Positions 1 to 25,803 of a DNA stretch of 28,195 nucleotides are shown here, piece after piece. A program made the position numbers and the translations under genes. The notes beneath the pieces are model-generated. The model worked only from the letters and a program-made list of their open reading frames with translations. It did not search any database and was not told where the DNA came from. Source of the stretch: a virus. The stretch is taken from positions 1 through 28,195 of the IMG/VR virus record IMGVR_UViG_3300033144_002368. The stretch is one strand, 5' to 3'. Position 1 is the stretch's first letter. Each line of letters begins with the position of its first letter.

Positions 1-46
1 CATCAGGCACACCATCAGGCACAACGTCTTCAGGAACAACGTCAGG
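1..46 (-). repeat. Short degenerate coding repeat (Pro-Asp-Val-type linker)
   Basis: The first bases repeat CATCAGGCACA-like units, then two diverged copies. Read on the minus strand within the giant gene they encode an acidic linker of the form PDVVPEDVVPDGVPD. This is the sort of flexible linker found between domains. The array continues beyond the left edge, so its copy number is unknown. Confidence 0.55.
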
Positions 47-3000
47 TGTGGGCGCTTCGGGCAACCCTAGTAAGTCAGTTCGCTTCGGCTCTGGTTTATT
101 GCTGCCTGTCGCAATCTTGTCCGCCAGCTTGTTAAGCATTGCGCCGATCTTTGTAGGAATGGGTCCCTTATCGTTGGAAGCAGCAACACGGCCAGCCTCA
201 GCAGCAGATGCTTTCTCGACAGCATCGAACAACTCTCTACGCGCTCCGTTTGTAGCTTCGTCCGCAAAGACTGGATCGTCTGTGATTTTATCCAGAGACG
301 ACACACGTTCTGACATCTCTTTGCCTATAGCTGATATGGCTTCCGGTTCCAGAGGATCACTGTCGGCCAATATCTCAGCTACCCTGTCTGCTACGTCTGC
401 GTCCAATTCCTCTTGATCTTCAGTTCGCAAGTCTCTACCTGAAAGAGAAGATGGATCCACGAATCGTGATCGTCGTTTCGGTGGCAACGGCAACACATCT
501 TGTGGCTTGTTGAGACGGTTGTCCCCACCCAGTGTGGGTCCTATGGTTCCTTCGGAATCGGTACCAATCACGTCCGCTAGCTTGTTGAGCCACGAAGAGA
601 AGTCAACTACATCCTTGATGCTGTGTCCGTAGTCTCTGCCGCTGGACTCCTTCAGCTTGGCCTTGAACTTCTTGTCTTCAGGAGTAGAGGCCCCCACCCT
701 CTTCTTTATATTAGCTAGATCAATACCTAGAAGTGAAGCAGCCTTAACTAGCTTGTTGATCATGGGCTTAGGTGCTGCCACACCACAGTTGCGTCCAAGG
801 GAATCAGAGAACCTACCAGGGAACCGCGTTCCGGGAGCGCAACGATGGCGGTTCACATTAGCATCCATGAACACTCGTCCGGTGCCCGATAGCCTGGAGC
901 CTACCGTACCAGCGCTACCGCCCACACTTGATCGACGGCGACGGCCAGGACGAGCTTTCAGTTCTGCATACAGTTCCATGCCCTGGTCAACACACGCTCT
1001 CTGATACTGAACATCTTTCCACTCAATGTCTAAAGATCGCTGTGTCTTGGTGAGCAGAAACCTAGTAGCAGACTTACCTGTGTCGTCTCCAACTAGCTTG
1101 TATGGCTCATCATCATCGTTCCTACGCGGAGCGGTTCTAGACAGGTAAGTCTGGAACACCCATAGTGGAACCGTGATCTTACGACCAGCACGCTCTACCG
1201 TAACAAGCTCTCGCTTGACACCCTCGGTAGCTGTGTCTTCGGTGTCTATGCTTTGGTCTACCACATAGCGCCCACTGCTATTCTCGGCAAAGCTTCTGAT
1301 CGCTTGGGTAGGATCGCTTATATCCGGATCAGCTCCTTGAAGTGCTGCACCGAACGACCTCAACAACCCGGCACGTTCTTCGTCGGTCATATCGCCGCCC
1401 ACACGGCGCACCGAGAATGATCCAAGATTAGGAACGTGGAAGACTACTGCTCTAAGCCCGGTGACCAAGGCAGGTACTTCTTCAGCCCCAACCTGTGGTC
1501 CTTGCCTGGCTACATCTGAAACGACCAGAACTCCGTCATTCATGTCATCGAACTCACCGAGAGATCCGAGAGTTCCTAGCCCTACGAACGGTTCCAATAT
1601 GATACCGTCACGACGAACAAATCTAGCACCCAGTTCTCCCTTAGGATCTTCATCGAATGCTGACCTTATTAGATCCACAGATCCCTGACGTGCGGCCGTA
1701 GACACTTCCTTGGGAGCTGCAGGAATTTGTGCAGCCCTTATGATGTCCAAAGGATTTCGGTTGCTTCGAAGGTCACCAATGCTTCGCACCAGTGAGGAAT
1801 CTTCAGCTAGAACACGAATGCGTTGTGACGCTTCAGGAGTGAGTGCCCCTGGTCCGGCCTTCGGTATTCCCAGAACCTGTCGACCACAAGTAGAGAAAGC
1901 TGAGTTAGTAAACTTTCCACCGTTCTCGAACCCTGGAGGACATCTGAACTGGTTACGTGCTCCAGTTGCTCTTCGGCCCGGAAGACCGGGCAGACCAACT
2001 CCACGACCACGCCGCCCGCCAGCGCCACCGGGGGTCAGTGATTCGAAAATGGCAGAACGTACAGGCTTTCGAATGTCTCCCAAGTCTCCTGGAGTGACGA
2101 TAGATCCTGCACTTTGCGCAGCCCTTCCCACTCGTGTGTTGCTGGTTACGAATCCTACCTTAACGCTGTTGTGCGCCCAAATGGCTGCCTTGTAATCAAC
2201 GGCATTCGGACCAATTCGATAGTGACTGAGATGAGACATCTTGGAAAGATTAGTTAGTGCTCTGTTCTCCTTCTCCAACGTAGAAGGGATTCCGCTCTTA
2301 CCGCGCTTACGACGACCAGATCTAACAACCCTACGAGCTGTGCGCTTTCCTCTCTTCTTCTTGCCCTTCTTGCCCTTACCTTCATTGGGCCACTTGCCCG
2401 TGGTCTCGTGATGCAGCCATGCACACAGAGGCTCTAGAGGGAACAGTTCTGGATGATCGGCCAGGATCACAATGCAGCGACGGAATCCACCTGGCTTTCT
2501 CATGATGGGTCGCCAGAAATCCAACAACTTCTCAAGGCCACCTCGCCTGGGACCACGGCCACGTGTGAGAGATGTGAGCCGTTCTTGTGGGATGGCGTCA
2601 GGGTGAACTGCTGCCTTACTGCGTGTAGTAGATAGCTGAACCTGTGTCCACATAGGACCGGCTACGACCCAAACATCGTTCACAGCAAACTCAGTGAGAG
2701 CCATCTCTGGGAGAGGTGTCAAGTCAGTTAGCTCTGTGTCGCTGTACGATAGCGTGACGTGAGGAGTGTATCCGTGAGAGTGATCTACCTGGACTCCCAT
2801 CTGTTCGAACATTTGCTTGAGAGAAACGTGGGCATCTTCCAGACCAGGAATATCCACGGAAGCCCACAACACGTTCTTGTCGGGATTGGTAAACGTACCA
2901 AGCCCAGTAAGCCTGCCGTGCATTCTTGGAGTCTTCTCGGCCCACCCTCGGACAGCAGCAACGATAGTCTCTAGGTCGTGATCGTCGCTCTTTCCAATGA

Positions 3001-3184
3001 ACAGAGTGGTGATGTGGAGGTTGTCCTGAGGCTCTGTGGTCAGTGGGTAGCTCATGAGAGCCATCTCTACGCGCCGTGGAACCCTTATGGCCACCATCAG
3101 GCCATCACGCTGCTCGTGCGCCTTCACGCCCATGTAGGACGGTGCGAGGGAAGATATGTCTGCGTAGTTATCTAGAAGGGTCAC
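1..3184 (-). CDS. Giant multidomain phage protein with N-terminal 2H phosphoesterase domain (partial, runs off left edge)
   Basis: The minus-strand frame is open without a stop from GTG 3184 to base 2, giving at least 1061 codons; an in-frame TGA lies 12 codons before the GTG, so this is the first possible start. Residues about 30-180 carry the two HxT signatures of the 2H (LigT/2'-5' RNA ligase-like) phosphoesterases, H57-I-T59 and H142-V-T144, each leading into a hydrophobic strand. Next come a segment with Cys237, Cys254 and a CAWLHH motif (about 230-266), a Lys/Arg-rich tract (about 268-297), and two copies of a cysteine module (C415 to about C433, and C782 onward; pattern CxPG..GxF..CG). 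The visible end is an acidic, Pro-rich repeat. It is the last visible member of the head-gene operon, 67 nt after the exonuclease/CCA gene. 2H enzymes act on 2',3'-cyclic phosphate or 2'-5' RNA linkages. I infer a virion-associated polyvalent protein; its remaining domains are unrecognised. Confidence 0.8.
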   Translation of the reverse strand, partial: MTLLDNYADISSLAPSYMGVKAHEQRDGLMVAIRVPRRVEMALMSYPLTTEPQDNLHITTLFIGKSDDHDLETIVAAVRGWAEKTPRMHGRLTGLGTFTNPDKNVLWASVDIPGLEDAHVSLKQMFEQMGVQVDHSHGYTPHVTLSYSDTELTDLTPLPEMALTEFAVNDVWVVAGPMWTQVQLSTTRSKAAVHPDAIPQERLTSLTRGRGPRRGGLEKLLDFWRPIMRKPGGFRRCIVILADHPELFPLEPLCAWLHHETTGKWPNEGKGKKGKKKRGKRTARRVVRSGRRKRGKSGIPSTLEKENRALTNLSKMSHLSHYRIGPNAVDYKAAIWAHNSVKVGFVTSNTRVGRAAQSAGSIVTPGDLGDIRKPVRSAIFESLTPGGAGGRRGRGVGLPGLPGRRATGARNQFRCPPGFENGGKFTNSAFSTCGRQVLGIPKAGPGALTPEASQRIRVLAEDSSLVRSIGDLRSNRNPLDIIRAAQIPAAPKEVSTAARQGSVDLIRSAFDEDPKGELGARFVRRDGIILEPFVGLGTLGSLGEFDDMNDGVLVVSDVARQGPQVGAEEVPALVTGLRAVVFHVPNLGSFSVRRVGGDMTDEERAGLLRSFGAALQGADPDISDPTQAIRSFAENSSGRYVVDQSIDTEDTATEGVKRELVTVERAGRKITVPLWVFQTYLSRTAPRRNDDDEPYKLVGDDTGKSATRFLLTKTQRSLDIEWKDVQYQRACVDQGMELYAELKARPGRRRRSSVGGSAGTVGSRLSGTGRVFMDANVNRHRCAPGTRFPGRFSDSLGRNCGVAAPKPMINKLVKAASLLGIDLANIKKRVGASTPEDKKFKAKLKESSGRDYGHSIKDVVDFSSWLNKLADVIGTDSEGTIGPTLGGDNRLNKPQDVLPLPPKRRSRFVDPSSLSGRDLRTEDQEELDADVADRVAEILADSDPLEPEAISAIGKEMSERVSSLDKITDDPVFADEATNGARRELFDAVEKASAAEAGRVAASNDKGPIPTKIGAMLNKLADKIATGSNKPEPKRTDLLGLPEAPTPDVVPEDVVPDGVPD

Positions 3185-3251: not shown

Positions 3252-5855
3252 CTAGGATGACCTCTTTCCTAGAGTTTGCTGGTACAGTTCAGTTTCGGCC
3301 TGCGCTATGGCTCTACCAATGGCAGCTCCTTCTAGTCCTGCAGCTATTAGATCCTCCGACCTAACAGCCTGAGGAGCAGTAGCAAACTCAACGAAAGCCG
3401 ACATGTCTTCCTTCGGAAGGTTCATAGCAGTTGCGAATTCCAGCACGTCACTCTTGTCAAGATCTCGCTTGTTGAATTCCTTCTTCAATCCAGGGGCCGT
3501 GGTCGGAGTTATCTTGCTCAAGTTCATCAAGAACCTAACGTCCGCTATTTCGGTGTTCTGGTACTTCATGGCTTTCAGGGTAGACTCGACTGCATTAACG
3601 TCATTGGCTCCAAGGATGGCAGCTAGCTGTACGTTTGGATTCGAGGACGATGACACTCGGCCAACGTCCACGTTCAAGGCTGGTGCACTTCCAGGAGTCT
3701 GGAATATCTGAGGCCATAGATTCAGCTCATCTATCAACTGAATGTACGTCTTCGTATCCTTAGCAGACCTAAGACCAGCCAGTATCTCTTCACGTATTCT
3801 CTCAGAAGAAACACCAGACAAGTCGTTGTCCGCCAGAATAGCGTCCTTGGTCGGCTGATCCAGATCGAATCCTGTGCGCCCTGTGAACCTTACGGCTCGA
3901 AGAATCCTTAGCTTGTCTTCACGGAACCTGTCCGTAGGATCACCCACGGATCGCACTACACCGTTCTCGATGTCGTCAATACCGCCAACGTAATCTATCA
4001 CCTCGTTGGAATCCAGATCGAAGAACAGAGCATTCATCGTGAGATCTCGGCGCGCCACATCTTCTTCTATCGTAGCTAGTGCTACGCCACCGTCAGGTCT
4101 ACGGCCTTCTCCTATGTCAGTTCGGAACGTGGCTATCTCGTACTCGTTGCCGTCCGGAGTCCTAACTCTGACAACGGCAAAGTCCTCTCCGGTGAGATCT
4201 ATCTTCAGATCTGGGTTCTTCTCCAACATGGCGATCACTTCGTCAGGAGTAGCGTCCGTGGCGAGATCGAAGTCCAATCGCTTGTCGTTGTCTTTGAAGA
4301 CATCATGGATGGGGTCAAGGTCATCAGGAGTTTCTATGCTTAGTGGCTTCCTGACAGGATCGTCCAAAACCTGTGCTCCTGGAATCTGAGCATCAGCGCG
4401 CTCGGGCGGCTTACCAGGATCAGATGTAGCGTAACCGCGCTGAAGGAGATCAGCGTGAACTCGTTCTAGTTCAGCGAACCGCTCTTTGGCTACGGTCTTT
4501 CGTTCGTTCTCTACGGAGAACCGTTTGGCAGCACGATCTGGATCCAGAGCCGTCGTGGGAAGGTCGTGGTCATTTGCGTAGTCCAGCATCTTGGACAGTA
4601 ATTCGGCGGTCGCTGCAGAGTCGGCGTCCGCTGTGTGCGCTGAGTCTCCTAAGTCGATACCAAACATGTCCGTCAAGTCTCCCAAAGTGTGGCTGTCGAC
4701 TACCTTGTTCGGATCATCCTTGTCCGACGACATCAACATCCTAGCCAGTGATAGAGTGTCTACCACACCGTCAGGGGTAAAGTCAATCAATTCATCATCT
4801 AACACTTCTTGAAGCATGGGCAAATCGAAGCCCTTCACGTTGTGCCCTACTAGCGTTGAGGCATCACCTATGAAGTCTACGAACTGCGCATGTGCTTCAG
4901 CGCTGCCCAGCTGTCCTTCCATGAATTCTGGAGTAATGGGATTCCCTAGCTCGTCACGCAGATTGCTCTTGGAGAAGTCGCTCCATTCATCAAACGCTAT
5001 TCCTGGATCCATGAAGAGGTTGAATCGTTCAGTGATCACGCCATCTTGCATCTTCACGGCTCCAAGCTGGACCGGCTTTCCTCCGTTGTCAAGCAAGTCA
5101 GTGGATTCGTAGTCGAACACTATCATGTCTTCTTTGAACAGATCTGTCTTGAACTTTCTCCAACTATCGAAGCTTTGTCCATTACGAGCTATAGCTTCTG
5201 TAACTCCTGAGAATGGGGGAGGGGACGGGCGAAGTCTCATGTCAGCTGGCTTCTCTGGCTCTATCAGGTATCCTTCGCTGTTGAACAATTCCGGGTACAG
5301 CCGTCTTTCGGCTGCTGTAGGTCCGTTGAGATCAGTGCCGCTTACGTTCAGAGTAACTTCTGGCAAATTTCCACCAGACCACACAAGATCAGCAGACGAT
5401 ACGGTCATGGGGTGAACCGAGGAGTGGTCCGTCAGGCTCTGTTCAGCGTGTGTGATCGACAGACTAGCGCTTAGTGATCTGGAACTGTTAGTGGGTGGCG
5501 TCAGCCCGTCAGGCATGTTCACGTACACCTCTACCTCATTGCCTCTGACCATATCGCCTAGGGCACTCTCAGTCTCTTCAAAGATGTCCAAGTCGGTGTC
5601 GTTGCCTCCCCTAGCCATGTATCGATCCAGGTTGGTTACAATGTCCGGAGCTGAAGAAAGGATCTCATCCATGGGAAATCCTTCGTCACTGACGGTCGGA
5701 ACTATGGGGACATCGCCCCAAACCCTAACTTCACTAAGACCAAGATCACTATCAAGATCGAAATCGGTCACCAGAGTACCTTTGGGAATGTCTGCCACAT
5801 CCACAGACACGATTCGAATCTGATCAGACGCCCGTAGCCGATGATCGTCTAACAA
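3252..5855 (-). CDS. DEDDh 3'-5' exonuclease fused to class II CCA-adding tRNA nucleotidyltransferase (with ART C-terminal fragment)
   Basis: An 867-residue multidomain protein. Residues about 10-52 look like the last strands of an ADP-ribosyltransferase fold (ending SEVRVWGDVPI) and complete the domain begun in the upstream ORF. Residues about 240-425 are a DnaQ-like DEDDh exonuclease: D248-Y-E250, GHN (338-339) with D344, and H407-T-A-D-A-D412. Residues about 510-860 match class II tRNA nucleotidyltransferase/poly(A) polymerase: DFD (528-530) followed by LATDATPDEV, EIATFR, EEDVARRDLTMNAL (RRD 602-604), DYVGGIDD and the ED-x2-R helix E646-D647-x2-R650. The usual GGxVRD loop before DFD is not recognisable. 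The ORF opens with TTG inside the end of the upstream gene, with no good ribosome site, so it may be made by frameshift. CCA enzymes rebuild tRNA 3' ends and DEDDh enzymes trim 3' ends; the pairing suggests 3'-end turnover, which is inference. Confidence 0.85.
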   Translation of the reverse strand: MLDDHRLRASDQIRIVSVDVADIPKGTLVTDFDLDSDLGLSEVRVWGDVPIVPTVSDEGFPMDEILSSAPDIVTNLDRYMARGGNDTDLDIFEETESALGDMVRGNEVEVYVNMPDGLTPPTNSSRSLSASLSITHAEQSLTDHSSVHPMTVSSADLVWSGGNLPEVTLNVSGTDLNGPTAAERRLYPELFNSEGYLIEPEKPADMRLRPSPPPFSGVTEAIARNGQSFDSWRKFKTDLFKEDMIVFDYESTDLLDNGGKPVQLGAVKMQDGVITERFNLFMDPGIAFDEWSDFSKSNLRDELGNPITPEFMEGQLGSAEAHAQFVDFIGDASTLVGHNVKGFDLPMLQEVLDDELIDFTPDGVVDTLSLARMLMSSDKDDPNKVVDSHTLGDLTDMFGIDLGDSAHTADADSAATAELLSKMLDYANDHDLPTTALDPDRAAKRFSVENERKTVAKERFAELERVHADLLQRGYATSDPGKPPERADAQIPGAQVLDDPVRKPLSIETPDDLDPIHDVFKDNDKRLDFDLATDATPDEVIAMLEKNPDLKIDLTGEDFAVVRVRTPDGNEYEIATFRTDIGEGRRPDGGVALATIEEDVARRDLTMNALFFDLDSNEVIDYVGGIDDIENGVVRSVGDPTDRFREDKLRILRAVRFTGRTGFDLDQPTKDAILADNDLSGVSSERIREEILAGLRSAKDTKTYIQLIDELNLWPQIFQTPGSAPALNVDVGRVSSSSNPNVQLAAILGANDVNAVESTLKAMKYQNTEIADVRFLMNLSKITPTTAPGLKKEFNKRDLDKSDVLEFATAMNLPKEDMSAFVEFATAPQAVRSEDLIAAGLEGAAIGRAIAQAETELYQQTLGKRSS
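5824..5855 (-). other. Candidate +1 frameshift region joining two halves of an ART domain
   Basis: Frame 1 (upstream gene) ends GGC GTC TGA at 5824. The downstream frame is +1 relative to it, is closed upstream by TGA about eight codons before its TTG, and offers only TTG 5855 as an early start. Slipping +1 at GTC-TGA would give ...ATGV-DQIRIVSVDV..., a seamless join to a predicted beta strand. The arrangement, a sense codon followed by UGA, resembles the prfB-type +1 site. No mass or ribosome data are available; a one-base error or real mutation would look the same. Confidence 0.45.
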
Positions 5856-6729
5856 AGTAGTCGTCCCACAGACCCTTCATGTTGGTAGCTACTGATCCTT
5901 TCAGAACGCCTGGCTGATAGTCCCACCCATCTATGCCTGCAGCTTCTTGTAACTCGGCCACTAGCTCATCGAACGACCTGCCTTCTCGCCGCGCTATGGA
6001 AACATCTCTCATGTCTCTGAATAGTTGTTCCGCTATGTCTCTATCCAACGTAAGAGACACACTCAGTTCGTCAGCCGATCCTCCGCCCAATCCTAGCCCG
6101 CCCGTGTTGACGCGCAAGGAACCGTCATCAAAGACGGATGAAGCAGCTGTCGTCACATGGTACATAGTGTCAGGTAAATCGCTGTTGGCCATCTCGCCCT
6201 GCGAACCAACTCGCTTAGACACAGACTCCCCGTTGAGCGTATTGCTGCCGTCAACTCTAAGGATGCCGTTAGAGATGCGGGCGTCGCTAGCCTGAAACGA
6301 CGATCTAGATGGCATCAGTGTGTGCGGAGGAACGGGGTCTACCACGTCTTCAAGTACAGACTCGTTAGACGGAACCAGTAGCGGCGCTCCGCCAATCACT
6401 CCGTGAGTTTCACCGATGGTTCTGTTCTCTCCAATGCCGGGTATCTGTAGCGGTGCTCTAGGCGCTCCGATCACAGCCCCGCGGTTAGAGATCCAGCTTG
6501 GCTGGAATCTTACTGGATTCCCTTCTTCATCAACAAGGGTTAATCCGCTAAGCGCTGAAGGTGAATCAGTTACTGCTCTAGAGATATCACCAAGCGCAGA
6601 AACGAATTTCGTTTTCCCAGGACGTTCCCAGATGGTGCCTTCTTGCACCAAACCATCGCCATCAGAGTCTCTGGCGTCTGGATTGTAAGGAGCCGGTCGT
6701 GGCCCTCCCCAACGTCTAAACCTAGCCAT
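5824..6729 (-). CDS. Phage head-operon protein with EF-hand-like loop and N-terminal part of an ADP-ribosyltransferase-fold domain
   Basis: A 301-residue ORF from ATG 6729. The N-terminus is Arg/Pro-rich and carries a calcium-loop-like D21-S-D-G-D-G-x3-E30 followed by GTIWERP. Residues 50-185 look like a low-structure linker. Residues about 186-300 begin an ART-like fold: MYHVTT with His191 at the NAD-site position, a Gly-rich turn GGLGLGGG (210-217) and SVSLTLDRDIAEQLF, which corresponds to the second ART signature strand and helix. The expected last strands are absent here but are encoded in the +1 frame just downstream. ART-fold proteins transfer ADP-ribose, or in the KptA/Tpt1 branch remove RNA 2'-phosphates; the subfamily cannot be decided. 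It follows the scaffold gene. Virion-packaged ARTs are known from phages such as T4 (Alt), so injection with the DNA is plausible. Confidence 0.7.
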   Translation of the reverse strand: MARFRRWGGPRPAPYNPDARDSDGDGLVQEGTIWERPGKTKFVSALGDISRAVTDSPSALSGLTLVDEEGNPVRFQPSWISNRGAVIGAPRAPLQIPGIGENRTIGETHGVIGGAPLLVPSNESVLEDVVDPVPPHTLMPSRSSFQASDARISNGILRVDGSNTLNGESVSKRVGSQGEMANSDLPDTMYHVTTAASSVFDDGSLRVNTGGLGLGGGSADELSVSLTLDRDIAEQLFRDMRDVSIARREGRSFDELVAELQEAAGIDGWDYQPGVLKGSVATNMKGLWDDYFVRRSSATGV

Positions 6730-6875: not shown

Positions 6876-8163
6876 CGGAAAAGGATGCTGCTAGTTCTGC
6901 CATCAAGGCAATGTCATCTTCAAGAAGGATGTTCTCATCAGTAGCTACATCCTCCTCTGCGGTCTTCTCTTCTTCCACACTCACTGAAGGTGCTGCCTCC
7001 TCTGCAGACTCGTCTCCGTTATCGCCAGCTTCCTCAAGCCAGCCGTCAGGTAGAAGATCTGTTAGATTCAGTGCCTGAGCACGCTTCACGATATGCCGTT
7101 TAGCCGTCTCTACATCGTCTGCTCTACCGTGAGCCTGAATGGCGTTCTGTAGATCTGTTTCGTCTACGATGGGGAACGATCCGTCAGGCAAAGCCACACC
7201 GGACTCAGCCAAAGAAGCTCGCTCTTCCTGTGAGAATGCTCGCTTGATCCTGATCTCTGCTTCAGCAGCAGCAATCCGATCAGCCAAATCGTCCTCAAGT
7301 TCCTTGATCTCTACGTCTTCAGAATCGTCATCCTTGATTTCGAATTCGTCGTAGCCCAGAACCTTGCCGTCTATAGACACAAACACATCGTAGGACTTGG
7401 CTTCTGCTTCCAACTCCACCACGTAGGCATCGGTGTCATAGAAGAACCCAACCTCAACGCCCTTGGTCTCACCGGGCAAGATGTTGGAGGCCAACTCGGC
7501 GGCGTCATCACTAGAGATGACATCTCCCATGTCGGCAGCCTTCTCAACGTAGTCGGAATCGATAGCAAGCCAGCCAAGCTGCTTACCTGATCCACTTACG
7601 AAAGCTTCTCGGTAATCGTCATCAGCAACCTTCACATCTACCACGTAGATATCTTCGACGTTGGAGTATCCAGAGGTAACAATTGCAGCACCTTCTGGCA
7701 GAGACGAAAGCACGTCTTCTTCGATAGTCTTCAGTCCTGGCAGGTCTCCTTCTGGAGCACAACCACCGCGACAGAAATCGCACGGAGTCTGTGCACTCTT
7801 GCGGCTCACTCCACACAGGAACTCGCCATCAGCCACGGCAGGAGCCTCTATCTTCTCTTCGATCGTATCCTGGTCGTCCTCGACGCTCATCTGAGTGAGC
7901 AAGTCGTCTACGGCCTTTACAGCATCGCTGGTGGGATCGCTATCAGTTGACTCTTCTTCCAAAGCGGACTTCTCTTCATCATCAACTGTTTCGTCCGAAA
8001 CCTCAGCATCGTCAGTCTCTACGATCTCTTCATCGGCAGACTTCTCTTCAACCTCATCGTCAGCGGACTTCTCTTCATCCACCTCTTCCTCTTCAACCAC
8101 GTCAGGCTCAGTGATCTGATCCGCCACAGTTTCTAGGGCTGCAATTTCTTCATTGATGTTCAT
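6862..8163 (-). CDS. Acidic scaffold-like head protein with PepSY-like repeats and a Cys cluster
   Basis: A 433-residue, strongly acidic protein between the prohead protease (ATGA overlap at 8160-8163) and the ART-like gene, the usual place for an HK97-type scaffold. Residues 1-110 are Glu/Asp-rich with three EEKSA repeats and are probably disordered. C117, C128, C131 and C135 could bind a metal. Residues about 143-200 and 217-275 look like two PepSY-like alpha-beta units, the second containing AAELASNILPG and SIDGKVLG. Residues about 308-377 (ERASLAESG, ALPDGSFPI, AKRHIVKRAQALNL, LLPDGW) form a small helical module I associate with phage head proteins. The C-terminal helix (410-428) could contact capsid, as in other scaffolds. 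A role in head assembly is inferred from position and composition; it is not an obvious major capsid protein. Confidence 0.6.
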   Translation of the reverse strand: MNINEEIAALETVADQITEPDVVEEEEVDEEKSADDEVEEKSADEEIVETDDAEVSDETVDDEEKSALEEESTDSDPTSDAVKAVDDLLTQMSVEDDQDTIEEKIEAPAVADGEFLCGVSRKSAQTPCDFCRGGCAPEGDLPGLKTIEEDVLSSLPEGAAIVTSGYSNVEDIYVVDVKVADDDYREAFVSGSGKQLGWLAIDSDYVEKAADMGDVISSDDAAELASNILPGETKGVEVGFFYDTDAYVVELEAEAKSYDVFVSIDGKVLGYDEFEIKDDDSEDVEIKELEDDLADRIAAAEAEIRIKRAFSQEERASLAESGVALPDGSFPIVDETDLQNAIQAHGRADDVETAKRHIVKRAQALNLTDLLPDGWLEEAGDNGDESAEEAAPSVSVEEEKTAEEDVATDENILLEDDIALMAELAASFSDDTD

Positions 8164-9410
8164 AGTTCCTCCTGGGAAACTGCTGTCAACTCTACACGCC
8201 TGGATTCAAGCGACGTTATGCCGTGCTTCTGGAGCACAGATGCGATTCTCTTCTTCATGGAATCTTCATCGATTCCGGGGTCCAGTGTTATCTTAAACCC
8301 ATTTACCTTAACGCGCAAGCCCTCTAGATCAGCGGAGATGGCGTTCATGTCTGAGTCCTCAGAGATTTCAAACTCTAGAACCTTCTCGACAGGAGCAGCT
8401 CCTTGCGCCGCCGCCTGCGGATCACCCGTAGGTGCTTCCGGCGTGACTGGCTCGGGAGTAGGCTCATCACCACGCAGCTTCACAACTGCCTTCCCAAAGT
8501 CCTTGATCACTTCAATGGCGCTCACGAGGCGACGCAGATCGTCATCAGACATGCCAGGTAGCGAACCCTGCTTCTCTTCCAGATCATCGTCAATCGCTTT
8601 GCTCACTGCAGTTCTGCGAGCTTCTACTAGTGCTTCTGGACTCTCACAGGGGAAGAACTTCCCGTTTGCGTTGTGGGTACCACTACATCCGATCTGTGCT
8701 CCACGGCTGGCCGCTTCTGCTTCATCAGCATACCCTTCGATGAGATCCTTGGTGAGCATATCGTCAGCTGAGATGTCCTTAGTCACAGTTAGCGAATTGT
8801 TCGTGACCGTGAACGAACCGTTACTTGTGTTCGTGGTACCTGTGGAGAGTCCGCCTGCCGTTGTAGTCAGGGTGTCAGACGTGTAGTCCTCGGACTTGAT
8901 CGACACCGTGCCGGTGAGGTTGTTAGCTCCATGCAGCACTGGAGAAACCTCGAACAACTCAACTTCCTTGAGTCTGTTAGCTTTGGCCATGGGATCGTAA
9001 TCCTGGAGAATGGTCTTGTAACCGATGCTCCACTCCTGCTCTTCTCCGAAGAAGGCTACCGTGTTGAATGCTTCTCTGCCCTTCTCGGACAACAGGTTGA
9101 ACTGCACCCTAGCGAATAGTCCGCCAATGTTAGCTACCTTCATCTTGTCTGGAAGACTCTCGTCGCCAGCAGGCACCTCACGAATATCTAGTACCTTACC
9201 GATTGGGTGGTTCCAGTCGTGTCCCCAAACAACTCTGGGCGTGCGTTCTCTCAGGGACTTGTCGAAAGCCCCCTTCTCTACGATGTCGGCAACACTGTCT
9301 TTGTTGCCAATGCCAGCTACAAACGCCTCTACGATACCTTCAGCTGCGTTCAAGACCTCAGCACCCTTGGTGCCGGTCATGTGGTCTAGCTTCTCCATGA
9401 GCGTGCTCAT
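8160..9410 (-). CDS. Prohead (capsid maturation) serine protease, HK97/U35-like
   Basis: A 416-residue protein from ATG 9410, chosen over the upstream in-frame codons because GGAG lies 6 nt before it. Residues about 20-175 match phage prohead proteases: an N-terminal VEAFVAGIG strand, EKGAFDKSL, the catalytic His64 in VVWGHDWNHPIG and the catalytic Ser128 in EEQEWSIGY, then ELFEVSPVLHGAN. This class cleaves scaffold and capsid delta domains during head maturation and is then released. The family is usually about 200 residues, so roughly 230 extra residues follow: a Ser/Thr-rich linker, a Cys module (GCSGTHNANGKFFPC, 241-255), a Pro/Ala-rich linker and an alpha-beta tail (EFEISEDSD, LRVKVNGFKITLDPG). 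The tail may be a fused scaffold-like part or a cargo tag. It sits directly before the scaffold-like gene (ATGA overlap). Confidence 0.88.
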   Translation of the reverse strand: MSTLMEKLDHMTGTKGAEVLNAAEGIVEAFVAGIGNKDSVADIVEKGAFDKSLRERTPRVVWGHDWNHPIGKVLDIREVPAGDESLPDKMKVANIGGLFARVQFNLLSEKGREAFNTVAFFGEEQEWSIGYKTILQDYDPMAKANRLKEVELFEVSPVLHGANNLTGTVSIKSEDYTSDTLTTTAGGLSTGTTNTSNGSFTVTNNSLTVTKDISADDMLTKDLIEGYADEAEAASRGAQIGCSGTHNANGKFFPCESPEALVEARRTAVSKAIDDDLEEKQGSLPGMSDDDLRRLVSAIEVIKDFGKAVVKLRGDEPTPEPVTPEAPTGDPQAAAQGAAPVEKVLEFEISEDSDMNAISADLEGLRVKVNGFKITLDPGIDEDSMKKRIASVLQKHGITSLESRRVELTAVSQEEL

Positions 9411-9496
9411 AAAAATCTCCAAATCGATCTCTTGACTAGTCGTAGCTTACTGTGTGTAGGATACGTCGGTTATCAGGTTTATGGAAACTATTTTCA

Positions 9497-10207
9497 TTAA
9501 AGAGGTTGGATGCCGTATCTCAAGAAGCAACGACATTGCATTATCAGATGCAGCGGTGCTGTGGGATCTCCAGGAAATCTGATTGGAATACCTTCAACAA
9601 AGAACGGTTCGTCTATTCTCACCGTGTCGCCGTCCAGCTTTCTGTGCGTAATTCTAACCTTTGCATCTCGTTGAGATACCCAAGTCTTCGTAATCTTCCC
9701 CGAGAGCAAAGCGGCCGTGTGTGCTCCAGAGTTGAACGAGGACACAGCTACAAATGTGGCTGTATTCGGTACCTCTCTCTTCCTACGAGCAAAGATTGCC
9801 CTTATCAAAAGTATCAGAATGGCCGTCCTGGCAGCCTTCTGTAGCAGGTCTATATCGTAGGTATCATTAAAGGCTTTCTGAATCAAAGTGAACGTCACGA
9901 GATTGGACTTCTCGGCAGACTCTGCAATCTGCTCTGTCAATCGCTCCACTTCAGCCGGTGAAAGTGGCTCTCCAGAAGAAGCCGCTCCTTCTATTATCAA
10001 CTGTTCGATCTCTGCATCCAGAGAGCTTCGGAAGTTGAAATCAGATACAGGAAGGATCATAACACTGCCAGCTGTGAGCGTGCCGAACAGCAACTCTGCC
10101 CGTCTATCATTGATAGATGTAATCACGCTACGTTCCAGTCTCGTCAGAAACTCTTCGTAGATAGCACTGATCGATGACTCTCTAGCGGCTAGGTTGGGTT
10201 CGTCCAT
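9497..10207 (-). CDS. MuF-like minor head (head morphogenesis) protein
   Basis: A 236-residue protein. The ATG at 10207 has AAAGGTG 5 nt upstream. The C-terminal third matches the Phage_Mu_F family: KTWVSQRDAKVRITHRKLDG, a DEPFFVEG segment, PGDPTAP and a terminal QCRCFLRY, where the CRC dyad and the surrounding His/Arg are the family hallmark. The N-terminal part is helical, including a hydrophobic AILILLIRAIF stretch. MuF-type proteins sit at the portal side of the procapsid, in few copies, and can be ejected with DNA. The gene lies 11 nt after the portal gene and is followed, after a 86-nt spacer, by the protease, the classic portal-MuF-protease order. Here the MuF protein carries no toxin domain; the effector-like domains lie in separate genes downstream. 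Confidence 0.85.
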   Translation of the reverse strand: MDEPNLAARESSISAIYEEFLTRLERSVITSINDRRAELLFGTLTAGSVMILPVSDFNFRSSLDAEIEQLIIEGAASSGEPLSPAEVERLTEQIAESAEKSNLVTFTLIQKAFNDTYDIDLLQKAARTAILILLIRAIFARRKREVPNTATFVAVSSFNSGAHTAALLSGKITKTWVSQRDAKVRITHRKLDGDTVRIDEPFFVEGIPIRFPGDPTAPLHLIMQCRCFLRYGIQPL

Positions 10208-10218
10208 GGCAACACCTT

Positions 10219-11649
10219 TTAGACGACAGCAGCACCCGTGTCACCGCCACCGGTAGGTGCTGGTGCTGGGGCTGGTGCTCCTCCTGCGGCGGGATCTCCG
10301 AACTGTCCAGTTTCGGGATTGAACTCAGTCACCTGTTCCTGCTGAGCCTGCTGGCCAGCGCCCGCTTGATCATCTAGCGAACCTTCACCGACTGCACCAG
10401 GAACCTCAGTAGGCTTCTCAGTGTTACCCATGGGTGTGAGGTTGGGGTTAGCTAGTAGAGAATCAGCCAACTCGGATTCAATCTTCTTCTTTCCGATGAT
10501 GGTACGGTACTCGTTAGCGCTTATGAGTCCGGTTTGGAATTCCTCCAGAGCGAACCGCGCTTGCTCTTGCTTGGCAAGCACTAACACGGGAACCTCATCT
10601 GTGTTGAACCCCAAGATATGATCAGGTGTTAGATGACTCAAGGGCCTTGACAGCAGTTCCAAGTGAGGACTCATGGTTTCCATCCAGAACACTCTGCCCT
10701 CTTCTTGGGCATTGCTGAAAGTTCTGCCAGAAGCGTTACCAATGATAGACTCCGGAACGCCGAAGGCTGCCAGGATCTCTTCCTTGGTCAACTCTCTCAT
10801 CTGAACGTAAGCGGCATCTCGTGGTGAGGCTGCTGTGTCCACGAAATCAGCGCCGTCCTCCGATGAGATAACGCCCACGGATCCGGTTCGGTTGATGTTG
10901 CCACGGAATCGAGAAGCCAACTCTTGTTTGTCGTCATCGTCAATTTCTGAACGCAGAACCAACAGACCTCCGGGCCGTCCGTCGTTCAGAAGGAACTGAC
11001 GGTTGTAGAGCTTAGCTAGCATCTCGATTTCGATAGCTACACCAGCTGCTTCCATCGGTGTCATGGAGAGGTACGGGTCAAGAGGGTGTGGTCTTCGGAT
11101 CCATATAACGTCCTTGGGCGCCAGCTTTATGACCTTAGCACTTGGCACAGCTACTTCATACCCAGACACGAATCCTTTGGCAGCCGGTATGGGAGAGGTG
11201 TGTTGGGGCGGCAATAGATTACACGCCATAACATCACCATTCTTGTCTCGAACGTCTCGAACGACTTCGATAAACACACCACGAGTGCTCATGAGCAACT
11301 GAGCAGACACGCGATATCTGAAGATGAAGGAGTTCTCGCCATCATTGGTTTGAGAGTTCATCAAATCAAGAATGGGATCGACAGTGATTATCTCACCGTC
11401 AGGACGATTGTCTGCTCGTAACTGCATGGGCAGCTTGGCTTGGTTTCCAGCTATGGCATCTATCGCCCTGAACAGCCATGTGACCTTCGACACACCGTCT
11501 CGGTAAGCTCGCTCTATGTCCCAGCCGTCCTTGTATCCTTGCTTACTGTTGGTTACTCCAGGATTCATCGCCGCTGGAGCACCGACCGGCACTCTCTTGA
11601 TCTGAACAGGAACAATGTCCTTAGATCGAGCGTTTGTATTCCAAGCCAT
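10219..11649 (-). CDS. Portal protein (HK97-like)
   Basis: A 476-residue protein. ATG 11649 is chosen because GGGAG lies 6 nt before it, and it overlaps the stop of the small membrane gene as TGATG. The sequence follows the HK97-type portal family: an N-terminal region with VTWLFRAIDAIAGNQAKLP, a central clip/wing part with DVIWIRRPHPLDPYLSMTP, the stem segment RQFLLNDGRPGGLLVL, and EEILAAFGVPESIIGNASG followed by an EGRVFWMETMSPHLE helix. The C-terminal 70 residues are Gln/Ala/Pro/Gly-rich and probably disordered. The portal forms the dodecameric ring at the capsid vertex through which DNA is packaged and ejected. Its partners in the window are the terminase on the opposite strand and the MuF protein just downstream. 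Confidence 0.93.
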   Translation of the reverse strand: MAWNTNARSKDIVPVQIKRVPVGAPAAMNPGVTNSKQGYKDGWDIERAYRDGVSKVTWLFRAIDAIAGNQAKLPMQLRADNRPDGEIITVDPILDLMNSQTNDGENSFIFRYRVSAQLLMSTRGVFIEVVRDVRDKNGDVMACNLLPPQHTSPIPAAKGFVSGYEVAVPSAKVIKLAPKDVIWIRRPHPLDPYLSMTPMEAAGVAIEIEMLAKLYNRQFLLNDGRPGGLLVLRSEIDDDDKQELASRFRGNINRTGSVGVISSEDGADFVDTAASPRDAAYVQMRELTKEEILAAFGVPESIIGNASGRTFSNAQEEGRVFWMETMSPHLELLSRPLSHLTPDHILGFNTDEVPVLVLAKQEQARFALEEFQTGLISANEYRTIIGKKKIESELADSLLANPNLTPMGNTEKPTEVPGAVGEGSLDDQAGAGQQAQQEQVTEFNPETGQFGDPAAGGAPAPAPAPTGGGDTGAAVV

Positions 11650-11825
11650 CAATCACTCCCAAGTAATATACCGAACAACCCCATACACGTCCCCGCTACC
11701 AACATCCCTAATCCGGGATGTACAAACCAACCAGCACCTACGCCAACTAGAGTAATACCAATGAACACTAGCCAGAATGGTGTTGATCCTCCGGTCATTA
11801 TCTGTGTTAAACTTGGGAAGGCCAT
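11649..11825 (-). CDS. Small two-TM membrane protein
   Basis: A 58-residue protein from ATG 11825; a longer reading from ATG 11861 would run through the promoter and is less likely. Two hydrophobic segments, FWLVFIGITLVGVGAGWFV and GMLVAGTCMGLFGILLG, are separated by a short HPGL turn, a helical hairpin. It is the first gene of the head operon, immediately before the portal (TGATG overlap). I cannot assign a function. Holin-like or membrane-anchoring roles are possible, but its position is unusual for a lysis gene. Confidence 0.6.
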   Translation of the reverse strand: MAFPSLTQIMTGGSTPFWLVFIGITLVGVGAGWFVHPGLGMLVAGTCMGLFGILLGSD

Positions 11826-16665: not shown

Positions 16666-17816
16666 CTTGTGTCATCCTGTATGTCGAGACTATTGGCGTC
16701 GGCAAGGGCTGCCATTCGGACAGAGTGAGCCTTGGTTCCTGGGCCTACGGGTGTGGGGGCTGTGTGCTCAAACTCATTCAACATCAGAGTTCGTATCAAA
16801 GCATCAATCGGATAACCAAACGGATCCAGAACATACTTTTTCTTCCACGTGGAAACGAACTTCATCGCTGCCAGATTGAGACCGTCAGTAAGCATGTTGT
16901 CCTCTATGCAATCCCTGACACCATTCCAAGAATCTTCCGCATAGGACGAAATCAGCGCCTCCATATCGAACTCCGACCAGAGCCATCGCTGTGCATCTAT
17001 CTGTGGGAAACACTCAACAAGTCTGTCGTAGAACTCAGGCTCCGTGCGGACAGCATCCATGATTCGTCTAGAAGCTACCGAATGCAACGGAATGCCTACG
17101 CGTTGGTTGGACCCACTCATAGCTGCATAGTCGTAGTAAGCACAGTACGAGCCTTCGTGCTCCTCAGTGATGAACTTGTAAACGTCGTTCACGGTCCAGT
17201 CATAGATCACCTTAGCGAACCTCATGGGGATAGCCTTAGAGAGTCTGTACGGCCGGTTGATGTAGTTCTCGCTGAGCTTCTGCACCACGGTCCGATGTCT
17301 GATCATGGACTCTGCTGCTCTGATGCCTGTCACAAAGGCTGTCATCCCCGACTTCCCTTGCATGGTGTAGTAGTCGATGGGTTCCGGAATAGGTTCGGAA
17401 GGATCCAACCCAAAGGACTCTGCAGTGATAGCGCCGTCTGGAATAGGACGGAAAAGCCGCCCGTCAGCTTCACGTTCCTTAGACCATAGAAGAGTGTACT
17501 CTCTACGACCCAAGACCCATACCTCTTGCCCCTGAGGCATGCAGTACCACTCCATGTCTATCCAGTCGTACGCAGCTACCTCTTCCACGTAATCCACCAC
17601 GGAGGGGGACAGCATCTCTTCGTCTCTGAAGATGACCTTCACCGGCCCAAGGTCTCGCTCTTCGTGGATCTCCTTGGCCAGGTACAGGCAAGCCGTGCTG
17701 TCTTTGCCGCCGCTGAATTGAACGCACACAGTATCGAACGTGTCGTACACGTGTCGCATTCTCTGTCGAGAGGCTTCGACAACATTGATATCTAAGAACA
17801 TGCGTCGTCTAGCCAT
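16662..17816 (-). CDS. PAPS-reductase/ATP-pyrophosphatase-like protein, IbrA-like
   Basis: A 384-residue protein from ATG 17816, which overlaps the nuclease stop as TAATG. The N-type ATP-pyrophosphatase PP-loop is clear: VCVQFSGGKDSTACLYLA with S35-G-G-K-D-S40, then VKVIFRDEEMLSPSVVDYV and WYCMPQ. The middle has MTAFVTGIRAAESMIR and PIYDWT-like segments (VIYDWTVNDVYKFI) typical of the DUF3440/IbrA branch. These enzymes activate a substrate by adenylation; relatives reduce PAPS or, as DndC, take part in DNA phosphorothioation. No DndD/E or cysteine desulfurase is seen, so phosphorothioation is not supported. It may supply sulfur or adenylation chemistry together with the IbrB-like partner downstream. 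Confidence 0.82.
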   Translation of the reverse strand: MARRRMFLDINVVEASRQRMRHVYDTFDTVCVQFSGGKDSTACLYLAKEIHEERDLGPVKVIFRDEEMLSPSVVDYVEEVAAYDWIDMEWYCMPQGQEVWVLGRREYTLLWSKEREADGRLFRPIPDGAITAESFGLDPSEPIPEPIDYYTMQGKSGMTAFVTGIRAAESMIRHRTVVQKLSENYINRPYRLSKAIPMRFAKVIYDWTVNDVYKFITEEHEGSYCAYYDYAAMSGSNQRVGIPLHSVASRRIMDAVRTEPEFYDRLVECFPQIDAQRWLWSEFDMEALISSYAEDSWNGVRDCIEDNMLTDGLNLAAMKFVSTWKKKYVLDPFGYPIDALIRTLMLNEFEHTAPTPVGPGTKAHSVRMAALADANSLDIQDDTR

Positions 17817-18214
17817 TACCAATCTTTCCAGTCCTCAGTATCGTGGCCTGCTTCCTTGAGTGCTTCAACCAAAGATGACTGAGTATATAGAGGATCGCTA
17901 GGATCTGGGTTGTGGTTCTCGTGCCACTCGAACGTGGGCCAAATGTTTGCTAGCCAGCGCCCGTACTTGCCGGTCTTCCTGGTGCGGACTACTAAAGGCC
18001 AGTCGTCATTACCTATCGACCGTAGTGCGATCCACTCGGTAACGAACTGCTTGGCTGCCAGTCCTTCCGGACGCTCGACGCCTCGGACCTCAGGCGTGTC
18101 GATGTTCAGGAGACGTAGACGGATGTCATGGCTGATACCAAACCCGAGATCCACCGTTACATCAATCGTGTCACCGTCGTAATGTCCGCGGTAACGGCAG
18201 CGATATTCCCACAT
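17816..18214 (-). CDS. Staphylococcal nuclease (thermonuclease) homologue
   Basis: A 132-residue protein consisting of essentially the SNase OB-fold domain alone. Seen motifs: HYDGDTIDVTVDLGF (D13, D15), then IRLRLLNIDTPE with R34, D39 and E42 at the catalytic Arg, Asp and Glu positions, and GKYGRWLANIW with the second catalytic Arg. The family cleaves DNA and RNA with Ca2+. There is no signal peptide, so it should act inside the host cell. The start overlaps the RNA-ligase stop (TGATG) and the end overlaps the IbrA-like start (TAATG), so it sits in one translationally coupled operon with nucleic-acid enzymes on both sides. Confidence 0.9.
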   Translation of the reverse strand: MWEYRCRYRGHYDGDTIDVTVDLGFGISHDIRLRLLNIDTPEVRGVERPEGLAAKQFVTEWIALRSIGNDDWPLVVRTRKTGKYGRWLANIWPTFEWHENHNPDPSDPLYTQSSLVEALKEAGHDTEDWKDW

Positions 18215-19320
18215 CAGTCCTTCTCCTTCAATAGGTACTTGTTGCTGATAGCCTTAAAGCTGCTACGTCTGCCGGGAGCTTCCGAACGCTCCCATACGAC
18301 ACCTTCGGCCAGCCTGTCTGGCGAGATAAGGGACCTGATCCCATCTACTTGAGCAATCGCTTCATCGATCGTGGATGCTAGCTTCAGTTCTGTGTAGTAA
18401 GGAGCATGAGGCACTTTGCTGTGCCAGTCAGACGCCTTGTTAGCTTCGAAGCTGCGGAACATTTCTTCAATAGGAATCTCTCCATTGACGAACAGATCCA
18501 CCAGGGGAGCCATTGCTTCATCGTACACCGTTCCGAATTTGAAGTTGAAAGCAGCAAGGTGAACACCCTTGACTCCCAGACGATTGCCTTGGATACCTTC
18601 GCCGTAGATCTCACCCTGCACCACAGCACCGATCGGCATCAGGTTTGCTAGATCGTACTTGTGAGCAATGGTCCAGTAAAAGTTCTCGCCTTCCTTGATC
18701 ATCCAGTTGCGCGAGCAAACCAACAGGCCCTCGTCTTCAGTCATAACAAACGTGGACGACGTGCCGTCGATCTTCTCAGTAGCAATCCACGTTTCAGAAT
18801 GCTCGATGATCTCGTCCCATTCCTTGGTCAGGTTCTGGACACGTTCTTCATTCGTCTTGCTAGCGTACTGTGTGGGGAAGTTGCCCTTAGGCTCACCACC
18901 ACCAGCCGAAGAAGGTAGAGGCGGCTCCCACTTGGTGACGCCGTGCTCTCGCTCCATGGTCTCGGTCAGATCCATATCTTCCACAAGCCACTCGTGATCC
19001 CAATGGTCATCTGGCCACAGATCTTCAGGCAGCACCATGAGGCCCTGTGATACCACGCCGCGTAGTTTGGCAGTCCTGATGACGTGACAAGTCTCGCCGT
19101 TCACGATACGCTTGGGAGAACGGTTAGCGAGGAACCCAAAGAACCCTGACAGCGGCAGAGCAGAATCGATCTCGAAGAAGATGGTCTTGTCGCCAGGCTT
19201 GTAGTTCTCGGCCTTCTTGACCACGACATCCCAGCCACCAACACGGGCGCGCTCAATGGCGTCAGCCCCTTCGATGGGGTGAACAGAGTCTACGATTCGG
19301 ACGGACACTAATGCTCGCAT
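18214..19320 (-). CDS. RNA ligase, DraRnl (Rnl5)-like
   Basis: A 368-residue protein from ATG 19320. A leaderless promoter ends 7 nt before this ATG, and the first strand MRALVSVRIVDSV starts there, so the longer TTG start is rejected. Residues 1-120 form the N-terminal OB-like module characteristic of the Deinococcus DRB0094-type ligases. The nucleotidyltransferase domain shows motif I TEKIDGTSS (adenylated Lys183), SRNW (motif Ia-like), motif III VQGEIYGEG, motif IIIa AAFNFKFG, motif IV AEGVVWE and motif V RSSFKAISN. Enzymes of this type seal 3'-OH/5'-phosphate RNA ends, preferring nicked duplexes. It opens an operon with a nuclease and the IbrAB-like pair. A tRNA- or RNA-repair role is plausible, as with T4 ligases, but its substrate is unknown. 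Confidence 0.9.
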   Translation of the reverse strand: MRALVSVRIVDSVHPIEGADAIERARVGGWDVVVKKAENYKPGDKTIFFEIDSALPLSGFFGFLANRSPKRIVNGETCHVIRTAKLRGVVSQGLMVLPEDLWPDDHWDHEWLVEDMDLTETMEREHGVTKWEPPLPSSAGGGEPKGNFPTQYASKTNEERVQNLTKEWDEIIEHSETWIATEKIDGTSSTFVMTEDEGLLVCSRNWMIKEGENFYWTIAHKYDLANLMPIGAVVQGEIYGEGIQGNRLGVKGVHLAAFNFKFGTVYDEAMAPLVDLFVNGEIPIEEMFRSFEANKASDWHSKVPHAPYYTELKLASTIDEAIAQVDGIRSLISPDRLAEGVVWERSEAPGRRSSFKAISNKYLLKEKD

Positions 19321-19327
19321 GTTCCCA

Positions 19328-19356
19328 ATTCTAGTGGAACTGTGGGCCGGTGTCAA
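19328..19356 (-). promoter_or_regulatory. Leaderless promoter of the RNA ligase operon
   Basis: On the minus strand a consensus TTGACA (19356-19351), a 17-nt spacer and TAGAAT (19333-19328) end 7 nt before ATG 19320. The TTGACA overlaps the stop codon of the ParB-like gene. This is the best promoter in the window and predicts transcription from the start codon itself. Confidence 0.7.
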
Positions 19357-25026: not shown

Positions 25027-25803
25027 CTAAACCCAAGGCTGGTAGCGACCATCACGTGCCTCAAAACGGAAGCGAACCCCGTTACGTCGAAGTTGGTGTC
25101 TAGCAAGCTCCGTGTGTTCGGTAGCCGGTCCTTTGATGGTGTGATACCTAGTGTTGAACACGGTACGGTCCACGATCATGTTGGGCACCTGAGCCATCAC
25201 CTTGCACTGATACTCCGCACGAACTTGAATCTCCAAGCTGATGCGTTCCAGAATTACCTGCTGTTCTTGCCGACTGAGTTCCTTGGGATAGTGATCCGCC
25301 CGTAGAACCTTGGCAGGATTGCCTCCGGCCAGACAGTTGCTGGGCATGACTCCACTGATAACAGAACCAGGAGCGTACACAGACTGCGGCCCGAGCGACG
25401 CCCCAGGATTGACTTGGCCGTTAGGTATCCATACTTGATCACCGATCGTGACTCCCTCGAAAGAGCATGGGAAGCCGTCTAAGGCCGACAGGTACACTCC
25501 GTGCGTAAACACCCTGGTCTGCACACCCAAGCCCACCTCGTGGCCAATGGAGACGCCTCGTGCCGTATTCACCTCACCGTTTATCCCAAGATGGAAGAAG
25601 TCGCCAGCAACAAGGAAGGCACCGGGATCGAAAGAACTTCCTCCTCCGATAAGAGCCTGATCCCCAACCCAGCTATCGCGTCCCAAATGAACCTTAGTGC
25701 CTTCCAGTCTAGCATAAGCGCCTATAGTCGTTCCGGCTCCCAGGAAGAGATCGTCAACTTCTATGACAGCTGTGGGGTGTACGTTACAGTCATCCAGGTG
25801 CAC
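25027..25803 (-). CDS. Left-handed beta-helix (hexapeptide) acyltransferase
   Basis: A 258-residue protein. GTG 25803 is chosen because GGAGG lies 8 nt upstream; it overlaps the glycosyltransferase end by 14 nt. Residues 1-165 are hexapeptide-repeat sequence with I/V/L-G-x4 spacing: FLGAGTTIGAYARLEG, GRDSWVGDQALIGGG, SIGHEVGLGVQTRVFTHGVY (the catalytic-type His in THG), VTIGDQVWIPNG and GSVISGVMPSNCLAGGNPAKVLR, as in WbbJ/maltose-O-acetyltransferase-like enzymes. The C-terminal 80 residues are unrelated and unknown. Such trimeric enzymes acetylate, or otherwise acylate, sugars. It ends the operon of glycosyltransferases and deacetylase, so it probably tailors the same glycan. Confidence 0.85.
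   Translation of the reverse strand: MHLDDCNVHPTAVIEVDDLFLGAGTTIGAYARLEGTKVHLGRDSWVGDQALIGGGSSFDPGAFLVAGDFFHLGINGEVNTARGVSIGHEVGLGVQTRVFTHGVYLSALDGFPCSFEGVTIGDQVWIPNGQVNPGASLGPQSVYAPGSVISGVMPSNCLAGGNPAKVLRADHYPKELSRQEQQVILERISLEIQVRAEYQCKVMAQVPNMIVDRTVFNTRYHTIKGPATEHTELARHQLRRNGVRFRFEARDGRYQPWV

What the first reader, a model, noticed from the sequence alone, without database searches (positions are those of the whole stretch)
3252..5855. DEDDh exonuclease fused to a CCA-adding tRNA nucleotidyltransferase inside a head-gene operon
Both domains have nearly complete motifs. CCA enzymes in phages are rare, and a fusion to a 3'-5' exonuclease directly after scaffold and ART-like genes is an arrangement I do not know. 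It could trim and rebuild tRNA 3' ends, or polymerise/degrade at RNA 3' ends, and may be packaged and injected as a polyvalent protein (the class described by Iyer, Aravind and colleagues).
Basis: partly seen in the sequence, partly recalled or inferred. Interest (0 to 1): 0.85.

Follow-up and report, generated by a model that had tools for sequence, protein, structure and literature searches.

The report
Damaged tagged phage cargo enzyme gene
A gene in a water-phage head operon joins a DNA-type exonuclease to a tRNA end-repair enzyme whose active site is deleted in this copy; it belongs to a large, barely described family of phage proteins that share a short front tag and carry many different enzymes, probably packed in the virus head and injected into the host.

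Summary
The minus-strand ORF at 3252-5855 encodes a DEDDh exonuclease with all five catalytic residues and a class II CCA-adding nucleotidyltransferase, inside a head operon. Three corrections follow.

First, the CCA domain is not nearly complete. It has a 17-codon gap that removes the first strand and the GGxVRD motif. The residues are present in all 78 intact relatives, including a syntenic sister (L253, 56% identical). This copy should not add nucleotides.

Second, the ORF starts inside another domain. An ART-like domain spans ORF 5824-6729 and this ORF, with about 22 residues missing and a frame change between them. The gene is probably one damaged gene: tag, ART-like, DEDDh, CCA.

Third, CCA enzymes are common in phages (431 records). 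DEDDh and CCA are independent modules: CCA was in 1 of 32 tag, DEDDh or portal records, and DEDDh in none of 25 CCA records.

The polyvalent-protein reading is supported. The gene's N-terminal tag (DxDxDGxVQEGTxWERP) precedes many cargo enzymes in related phages. A trim-and-rebuild tRNA enzyme is not supported for this copy. An intact CCA cargo beside a 2H RNA phosphodiesterase exists in L253. Whether the lesions are real or assembly artefacts cannot be told here.

The parts
6640..6729 (-). N-terminal tag core (NPDARDSDGDGLVQEGTIWERP) of the cargo gene; the whole tag region runs to about residue 77 of ORF 5824-6729
   Evidence: Tag alignments A1 and A9; 120 tag ORFs in fetched loci
5824..6729 (-). 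ORF with tag plus first part of an ART-like domain (conserved H in DTMYHV)
   Evidence: Custom HMM from L112, L149 and L188, model positions 18-133, E 7e-17. ART assignment is by motif only; no Pfam, NCBIfam or PDB hit
5828..5833 (-). Break in the ART-like domain: frame change with about 22 residues missing relative to three relatives in which the domain is in one frame
   Evidence: HMM continues at model position 156 in the frame of ORF 3252-5855
5700..5828 (-). C-terminal part of the ART-like domain, including the conserved acidic motif LSEVRVWGD
   Evidence: HMM positions 156-196, E 1.3e-5
3252..5855 (-). The 867-codon ORF of the finding: ART-like C-terminus, linker, DEDDh, linker, CCA nucleotidyltransferase
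4551..5153 (-). DEDDh 3'-5' exonuclease domain, residues about 235-435; D248, E250, D344, H407, D412 all present
   Evidence: Pfam RNase_T E 5.7e-10; 35-48% identity to DEDDh modules of tag proteins L112, L188, L106, L107, L124
3252..4343 (-). Class II CCA-adding nucleotidyltransferase domain, residues 505-867, no HD domain detected
   Evidence: Pfam PolyA_pol E 9.8e-23; 56% identical to L253 over 376 aligned positions; VIA Z 22.2 to 4x4w
4274..4275 (-). Junction of the 17-codon in-frame gap in the CCA domain, between L527 and D528
   Evidence: 72 relatives support a gap of exactly 17 residues; alignment A8; DNA alignment with L253
2615..3184 (-). 2H RNA 2',3'-cyclic phosphodiesterase domain at the N-terminus of the next gene (HIT and HVT motifs)
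   Evidence: TIGR02258 E 9e-15, Pfam 2_5_RNA_ligase2 E 5.6e-12; 62% identical partner in L253
6862..8163 (-). Putative scaffold gene (no family match), conserved upstream neighbour of the cargo slot
   Evidence: homologues in about 60 loci
8160..9422 (-). Prohead serine protease
   Evidence: Pfam Peptidase_S78 E 1e-11
9497..10207 (-). MuF-like minor head protein
   Evidence: Pfam Phage_Mu_F, PHROG head morphogenesis
10219..11652 (-). Portal protein
   Evidence: Pfam Phage_portal E 2e-49

Best explanation
This is a polyvalent cargo gene in the variable slot of a tailed-phage head operon, lying after portal, MuF, protease and a putative scaffold. In design it is one polypeptide of about 1,170 residues: N-terminal tag, ART-like domain, DEDDh exonuclease, CCA-adding nucleotidyltransferase. 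The modules are drawn from a shared pool and combined independently. In this contig the gene carries two lesions: a frame break inside the ART-like domain and a 17-codon in-frame gap that removes the nucleotide-binding half of the CCA active site. Shown here: the domains, the tag family, the slot, the independence of the modules and the lesions in the assembled sequence. Inferred: the tag takes the protein into the head; it is injected; in intact relatives (L253) the CCA domain restores host tRNA 3' ends damaged by defence enzymes, beside a 2H phosphodiesterase that opens cyclic-phosphate ends. In this copy only the DEDDh nuclease keeps a complete catalytic set, and it probably acts on DNA ends.
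For: Domains. Tag family: 61 distinct tag ORFs among the fetched loci, carrying zeta-toxin kinase, RNase_T, DUF3626, PI3/4 kinase, ART, UvrD, MPTase-PolyVal and prohead protease domains; 39 of 95 tag loci hold a window head-gene homologue. DEDDh module in phage ORFs of about 1,200 to over 4,200 aa, some with ArdC-N, MPTase-PolyVal, ART, NUDIX or GNAT. Slot swap: L002 and L003 carry a different 407-aa protein there; L253 carries kinase plus intact CCA and the 2H gene downstream. Lesions. Module independence.
Against: No proteomics or infection data: packaging and injection are inferred from position, tag and class. The ART assignment rests on motif resemblance; no library or PDB match. The rest of the CCA domain is well kept, so the deletion is either recent or not real. 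The tag model has no confident PDB match, so its targeting role is a guess.
Confidence: 0.72

Rival explanations
1. The two lesions are assembly or sequencing artefacts; the virus in nature carries an intact tag-ART-DEDDh-CCA protein with both activities.
For: Both lesions fall in one gene; the rest of the CCA domain and its frame are intact; no other conserved gene in the window has such a well-supported gap; a single metagenome contig with no near-identical copy found.
Against: A clean in-frame gap of exactly 17 codons is not a usual short-read error; no other frame break was detected in conserved genes of the window by homology, apart from one weak case.
Confidence: 0.3
2. One reading: one working enzyme in which the DEDDh domain trims and the CCA domain rebuilds tRNA 3' ends.
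For: Physical adjacency; a CCA fold with most motifs; the same phage encodes an RNA ligase and a 2H phosphodiesterase.
Against: Nucleotide-binding half of the CCA active site missing; DEDDh closest to PolC/DinG/DnaQ; the modules do not co-occur elsewhere.
Confidence: 0.06
3. The CCA domain has lost catalysis but is kept as a tRNA-binding domain that steers the exonuclease to tRNA or other RNA 3' ends, making an attacker rather than a repairer.
For: The deletion is in frame; the RNA-binding neck, body and tail stay conserved and the fold is recovered.
Against: The lost piece is part of the structural core of the head domain; DEDDh affinity is to DNA exonucleases; the neighbouring ART-like domain is also broken, which suggests decay.
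Confidence: 0.12
4. Ordinary phage CCA enzyme that matures phage-encoded tRNAs, fused by chance.
For: Stand-alone CCA enzymes are common in large phages.
Against: No tRNA gene in the window; location in the head slot and a multidomain architecture; active-site loss.
Confidence: 0.04

Closest known systems
Polyvalent proteins of phages (Iyer et al. 2017, PMC5512222)
   Same: Large multidomain proteins among late virion genes; relatives carry MPTase-PolyVal, ArdC-N, ART and kinase domains; 2H and Pol-beta NTases are already listed for the class.
   Different: Text searches for 'CCA' and 'DEDD' in that paper find nothing; its Pol-beta NTases are minimal forms in firmicute elements, not CCA enzymes. 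I saw no mention of this tag in the parts I read. The copy here is damaged.
Class II CCA-adding enzymes (PRK13299 / tRNA_CCA_actino; PHROG 2244)
   Same: Fold, DxD, RRD and EDxxR motifs, RNA-binding region.
   Different: First strand and GGxVRD absent; no HD domain detected; fused behind DEDDh.
PolC/DinG/DnaQ-type DEDDh exonucleases (PDB 2p1j, 9qpc, 8zef; PHROG 192)
   Same: All five catalytic residues and the ExoI-III motifs.
   Different: Free of a polymerase or DinG helicase; a cargo module with a proline-rich linker.
L253 cargo protein (IMG/VR 3300035698_002642)
   Same: Same operon slot, 56% identical CCA domain, same 2H gene downstream.
   Different: HipA/PI3K-like kinase instead of ART-like and DEDDh; GGxVRD intact; a Cys motif instead of the DxDxDG tag.
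MuF polymorphic toxins of temperate phages (PMC5576092)
   Same: Head-operon position and variable enzymatic cargo (known to me as a class; paper listed, not read).
   Different: The cargo is not fused to MuF here and no immunity gene was noted.

Membership tests
Polyvalent proteins | Several unrelated enzymatic domains in one polypeptide | tested here: met
   DEDDh plus CCA in one ORF; ART-like part in the same gene by HMM across the frame break
Polyvalent proteins | Encoded among late virion genes of a portal-terminase phage | tested here: met
   Portal, MuF, protease directly upstream, terminase nearby
Polyvalent proteins | Domain pool shared with known polyvalent proteins (MPTase-PolyVal, ArdC-N, ART) | tested here: met
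   In relatives with the same tag or DEDDh module, not in the window protein itself
Polyvalent proteins | Packaged in the virion and injected | not testable with these tools
   Needs virion proteomics and an injection assay
Class II CCA-adding enzymes | hGG[ST/A]xVRD nucleotide-binding motif next to DxD | tested here: not met
   17-residue gap
Class II CCA-adding enzymes | DxD, RRD and EDxxR motifs | tested here: met
   Residues 528-530, 602-604, 646-650
Class II CCA-adding enzymes | Overall fold | tested here: met
   AlphaFold2 pLDDT 86, VIA Z 18-22 to CCA enzymes
Class II CCA-adding enzymes | Adds CCA to tRNA | not testable with these tools
   Needs an assay
DEDDh exonucleases | D, E, D, H, D catalytic set | tested here: met
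   D248, E250, D344, H407, D412
ADP-ribosyltransferases (upstream part) | Significant match to an ART family | tested here: inconclusive
   No match in Pfam, NCBIfam or PDB; motif resemblance only

The most novel reading that the evidence does not exclude
The roughly 70-residue DxDxDGxVQEGTxWERP tag is a portable head-loading signal that lets uncultivated aquatic phages package and inject an interchangeable set of enzymes, among them (in intact relatives such as L253, which uses a different N-terminal motif) a tRNA 3'-end repair set of CCA-adding enzyme plus 2H phosphodiesterase that undoes tRNA-directed defences at the moment of infection.
Probability: 0.25. Interest if true: 0.75.

Novelty: new variant of a known kind. 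Interest (0 to 1): 0.48.

Why it matters
The DEDDh-CCA fusion itself turns out to be a pairing of two independent modules in a damaged copy, which saves others from building a trim-and-rebuild story on it. The family it points to matters more. A short, very conserved tag precedes dozens of different enzymes in phage head operons, gave no Pfam match of its own, barely touches one PHROG of unknown function, and has no match in the phage collection searched. If the tag is a loading signal, it would make injected phage effectors predictable from sequence and testable by moving the tag to a reporter. CCA enzymes as head cargo would also be a new kind of early counter to defences that damage or block tRNA 3' ends.

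Tried and rejected
Full-length protein relatives of the ORF: none in viral contigs or phages. Tag in phage records: no match at E up to 1. A substitute GG motif elsewhere in the window: none in six frames. Frame breaks in other conserved genes: the only signals were the natural split of portal and MuF and one weak protease case, L076. DEDDh in CCA records and CCA in DEDDh/tag records: none, except CCA in L253, which lacks DEDDh. RNA ligase of the window in 27 related records: none, without a positive control. ART family by profile against PDB and NCBIfam: nothing. Alignment A7 with both domain sets was misaligned and discarded. The first CCA alignment was too diverse for a scan. The 2H scan found only L253's own contig, because its patterns were weak. 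Foldseek with the tag model: best E 1.5, no confident match. A programmed +1 frameshift between the two ORFs was considered: about 22 missing residues fit a deletion better.

Full report
Observation. The ORF at 3252-5855 lies on the minus strand and is 867 codons long with a TTG start. Pfam finds RNase_T (E 5.7e-10, residues 245-420), the poly(A) polymerase/CCA head domain (E 9.8e-23, residues 525-635) and its RNA-binding region. NCBIfam and PHROGs agree. Upstream in the same operon are portal, MuF, prohead protease and a putative scaffold, and the next gene starts with a 2H phosphodiesterase domain. So both domains and the head context are real.

DEDDh. All five catalytic residues are present (D248, E250, D344, H407, D412). 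A scan with a five-member alignment gave 59 loci in which this module sits mostly inside large phage ORFs, from 1,177 to over 4,200 aa. Those proteins also carry ART, MPTase-PolyVal, ArdC-N, UvrD, NUDIX and GNAT domains. Against solved structures the module is closest to PolC, DinG and DnaQ, that is, DNA exonucleases.

CCA domain. The closest relative is L253 (56% identity, E 1e-125). Aligned with it and 33 others, the window copy lacks 17 consecutive columns that the others keep: the first strand, the GGxVRD motif and the start of the next helix. 72 relatives support the same 17-residue gap, and no comparably supported gap exists in any other conserved gene of the window. All 78 relatives with a whole ORF have the motif; the window has it nowhere. 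DxD, RRD and EDxxR remain. AlphaFold2 gives a class II CCA fold (pLDDT 86, VIA Z 22.2 to the human mitochondrial enzyme), but a model guided by intact relatives cannot show activity. From what is known of the Pol-beta superfamily, the lost GG turn and strand bind the incoming nucleotide, so this copy should not add nucleotides.

The gene is broken once more. A profile built from three relatives with a contiguous ART-like domain (L112, L149, L188) matches ORF 5824-6729 at model positions 18-133 and then ORF 3252-5855 at 156-196. About 22 residues are missing and the frame changes. The TTG start has no convincing ribosome-binding site. The two ORFs are therefore most simply one gene: tag, ART-like, DEDDh, CCA. 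The ART label itself rests on motif resemblance; libraries and PDB sequences give nothing.

The tag. ORF 5824-6729 begins with NPDARDSDGDGLVQEGTIWERP. The same tag, with a second short motif about 30 residues on, occurs in 120 ORFs of fetched loci, 61 of them distinct. At least 192 stretches in IMG/VR encode it and only three in genome contigs, all MAGs. None was found in 50,697 phage records. Of 95 tag loci, 39 hold a homologue of a head-operon gene of the window. Tag proteins carry zeta-toxin kinase, RNase_T, DUF3626, PI3/4 kinase, ART, UvrD, MPTase-PolyVal and prohead protease domains. The tag model has no confident PDB match. PHROG 7924 (unknown function) weakly covers the tag core in the window (E 0.1) and matches 5 of 40 tag proteins overall (best E 3e-12).

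The slot. In L002 and L003 the space between the putative scaffold and the downstream gene holds a different 407-aa protein, and the downstream gene lacks the 2H domain. In L253 it holds a HipA/PI3K-like kinase fused to an intact CCA domain, and the downstream gene has the 2H domain at 62% identity. So cargo is swapped at this place. CCA and 2H occur together in the two cases seen and are both absent in two others. That is a lead, not a statistic.

Do DEDDh and CCA belong together? No evidence for it. CCA was found in 1 of 32 tag, DEDDh or portal records, namely L253, which has no DEDDh; DEDDh was found in 0 of 25 CCA or portal records (many records are incomplete, and the DEDDh search had no positive control among its genomes). 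CCA is fused to other domains in other phages: DUF192 and PAP2 in L261, and a zincin-like HELQH stretch in L260, seen by eye. L260 lies in a replication region, not a head operon.

Mechanism. Best supported: a polyvalent head-cargo gene built from interchangeable modules, damaged in this contig. In intact relatives the CCA domain could restore tRNA 3' ends. Host systems that act there are known: MenT toxins extend tRNA acceptor ends (PMC11541572, PMC10435456) and FaRel2 pyrophosphorylates the CCA end (PMC11559606); these are read from abstracts only. Phage CCA enzymes are described as tRNA-end restorers in PMC7824862. The window also encodes an ATP-dependent RNA ligase (TIGR02306 E 5e-44), which fits an RNA-repair theme in this virus. 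Injection, loading and the tRNA role are inference.

What cannot be told. Whether the two lesions exist in the virus or only in the assembly needs the raw reads. Whether the tag loads proteins into heads needs virion proteomics.

Noticed in passing
window 18214-19356 (-): ATP-dependent RNA ligase of the DRB0094 family (TIGR02306 E 5e-44, just under the curated cutoff). With the 2H domain it suggests an RNA-repair theme in this phage.
   Followed up: partly
window 9497-11652 (-): Portal and MuF are separate ORFs here and in L002/L003, but one fused ORF of about 735 aa in more than 20 relatives.
   Followed up: partly
window about 2435-2615 (-): A 60-residue module (RGRGPRRGGLEKLLDFWRPIMRKPGGFRRC...W) is 65-80% identical across dozens of phages, far more conserved than its surroundings.
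   Followed up: no
window 2-3184 (-); L253:639-4163: Repeated Cys motif of the form RCPPG..GG.FT....C, which also stands near the N-terminus of the L253 cargo protein, perhaps a second tag.
   Followed up: no
L195, L209, L211, L221: Open frames that run through the whole 12.6-kb locus (over 4,180 codons) and contain the DEDDh module: very large phage proteins.
   Followed up: partly
L082:6916-8580, L114:3976-8019, L124:2053-8307: Single ORFs with two or three copies of the tag, each followed by other sequence.
   Followed up: no
window 17816-18214 (-): Small SNase-like ORF (weak) whose relatives lie near the CCA genes of L254, L259 and L263.
   Followed up: no
window 25790-26518 and 26522-27211 (-): Two adjacent similar ORFs with shared N-terminal sequence (glycosyltransferase-like by eye), apparently a tandem duplication.
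   Followed up: no
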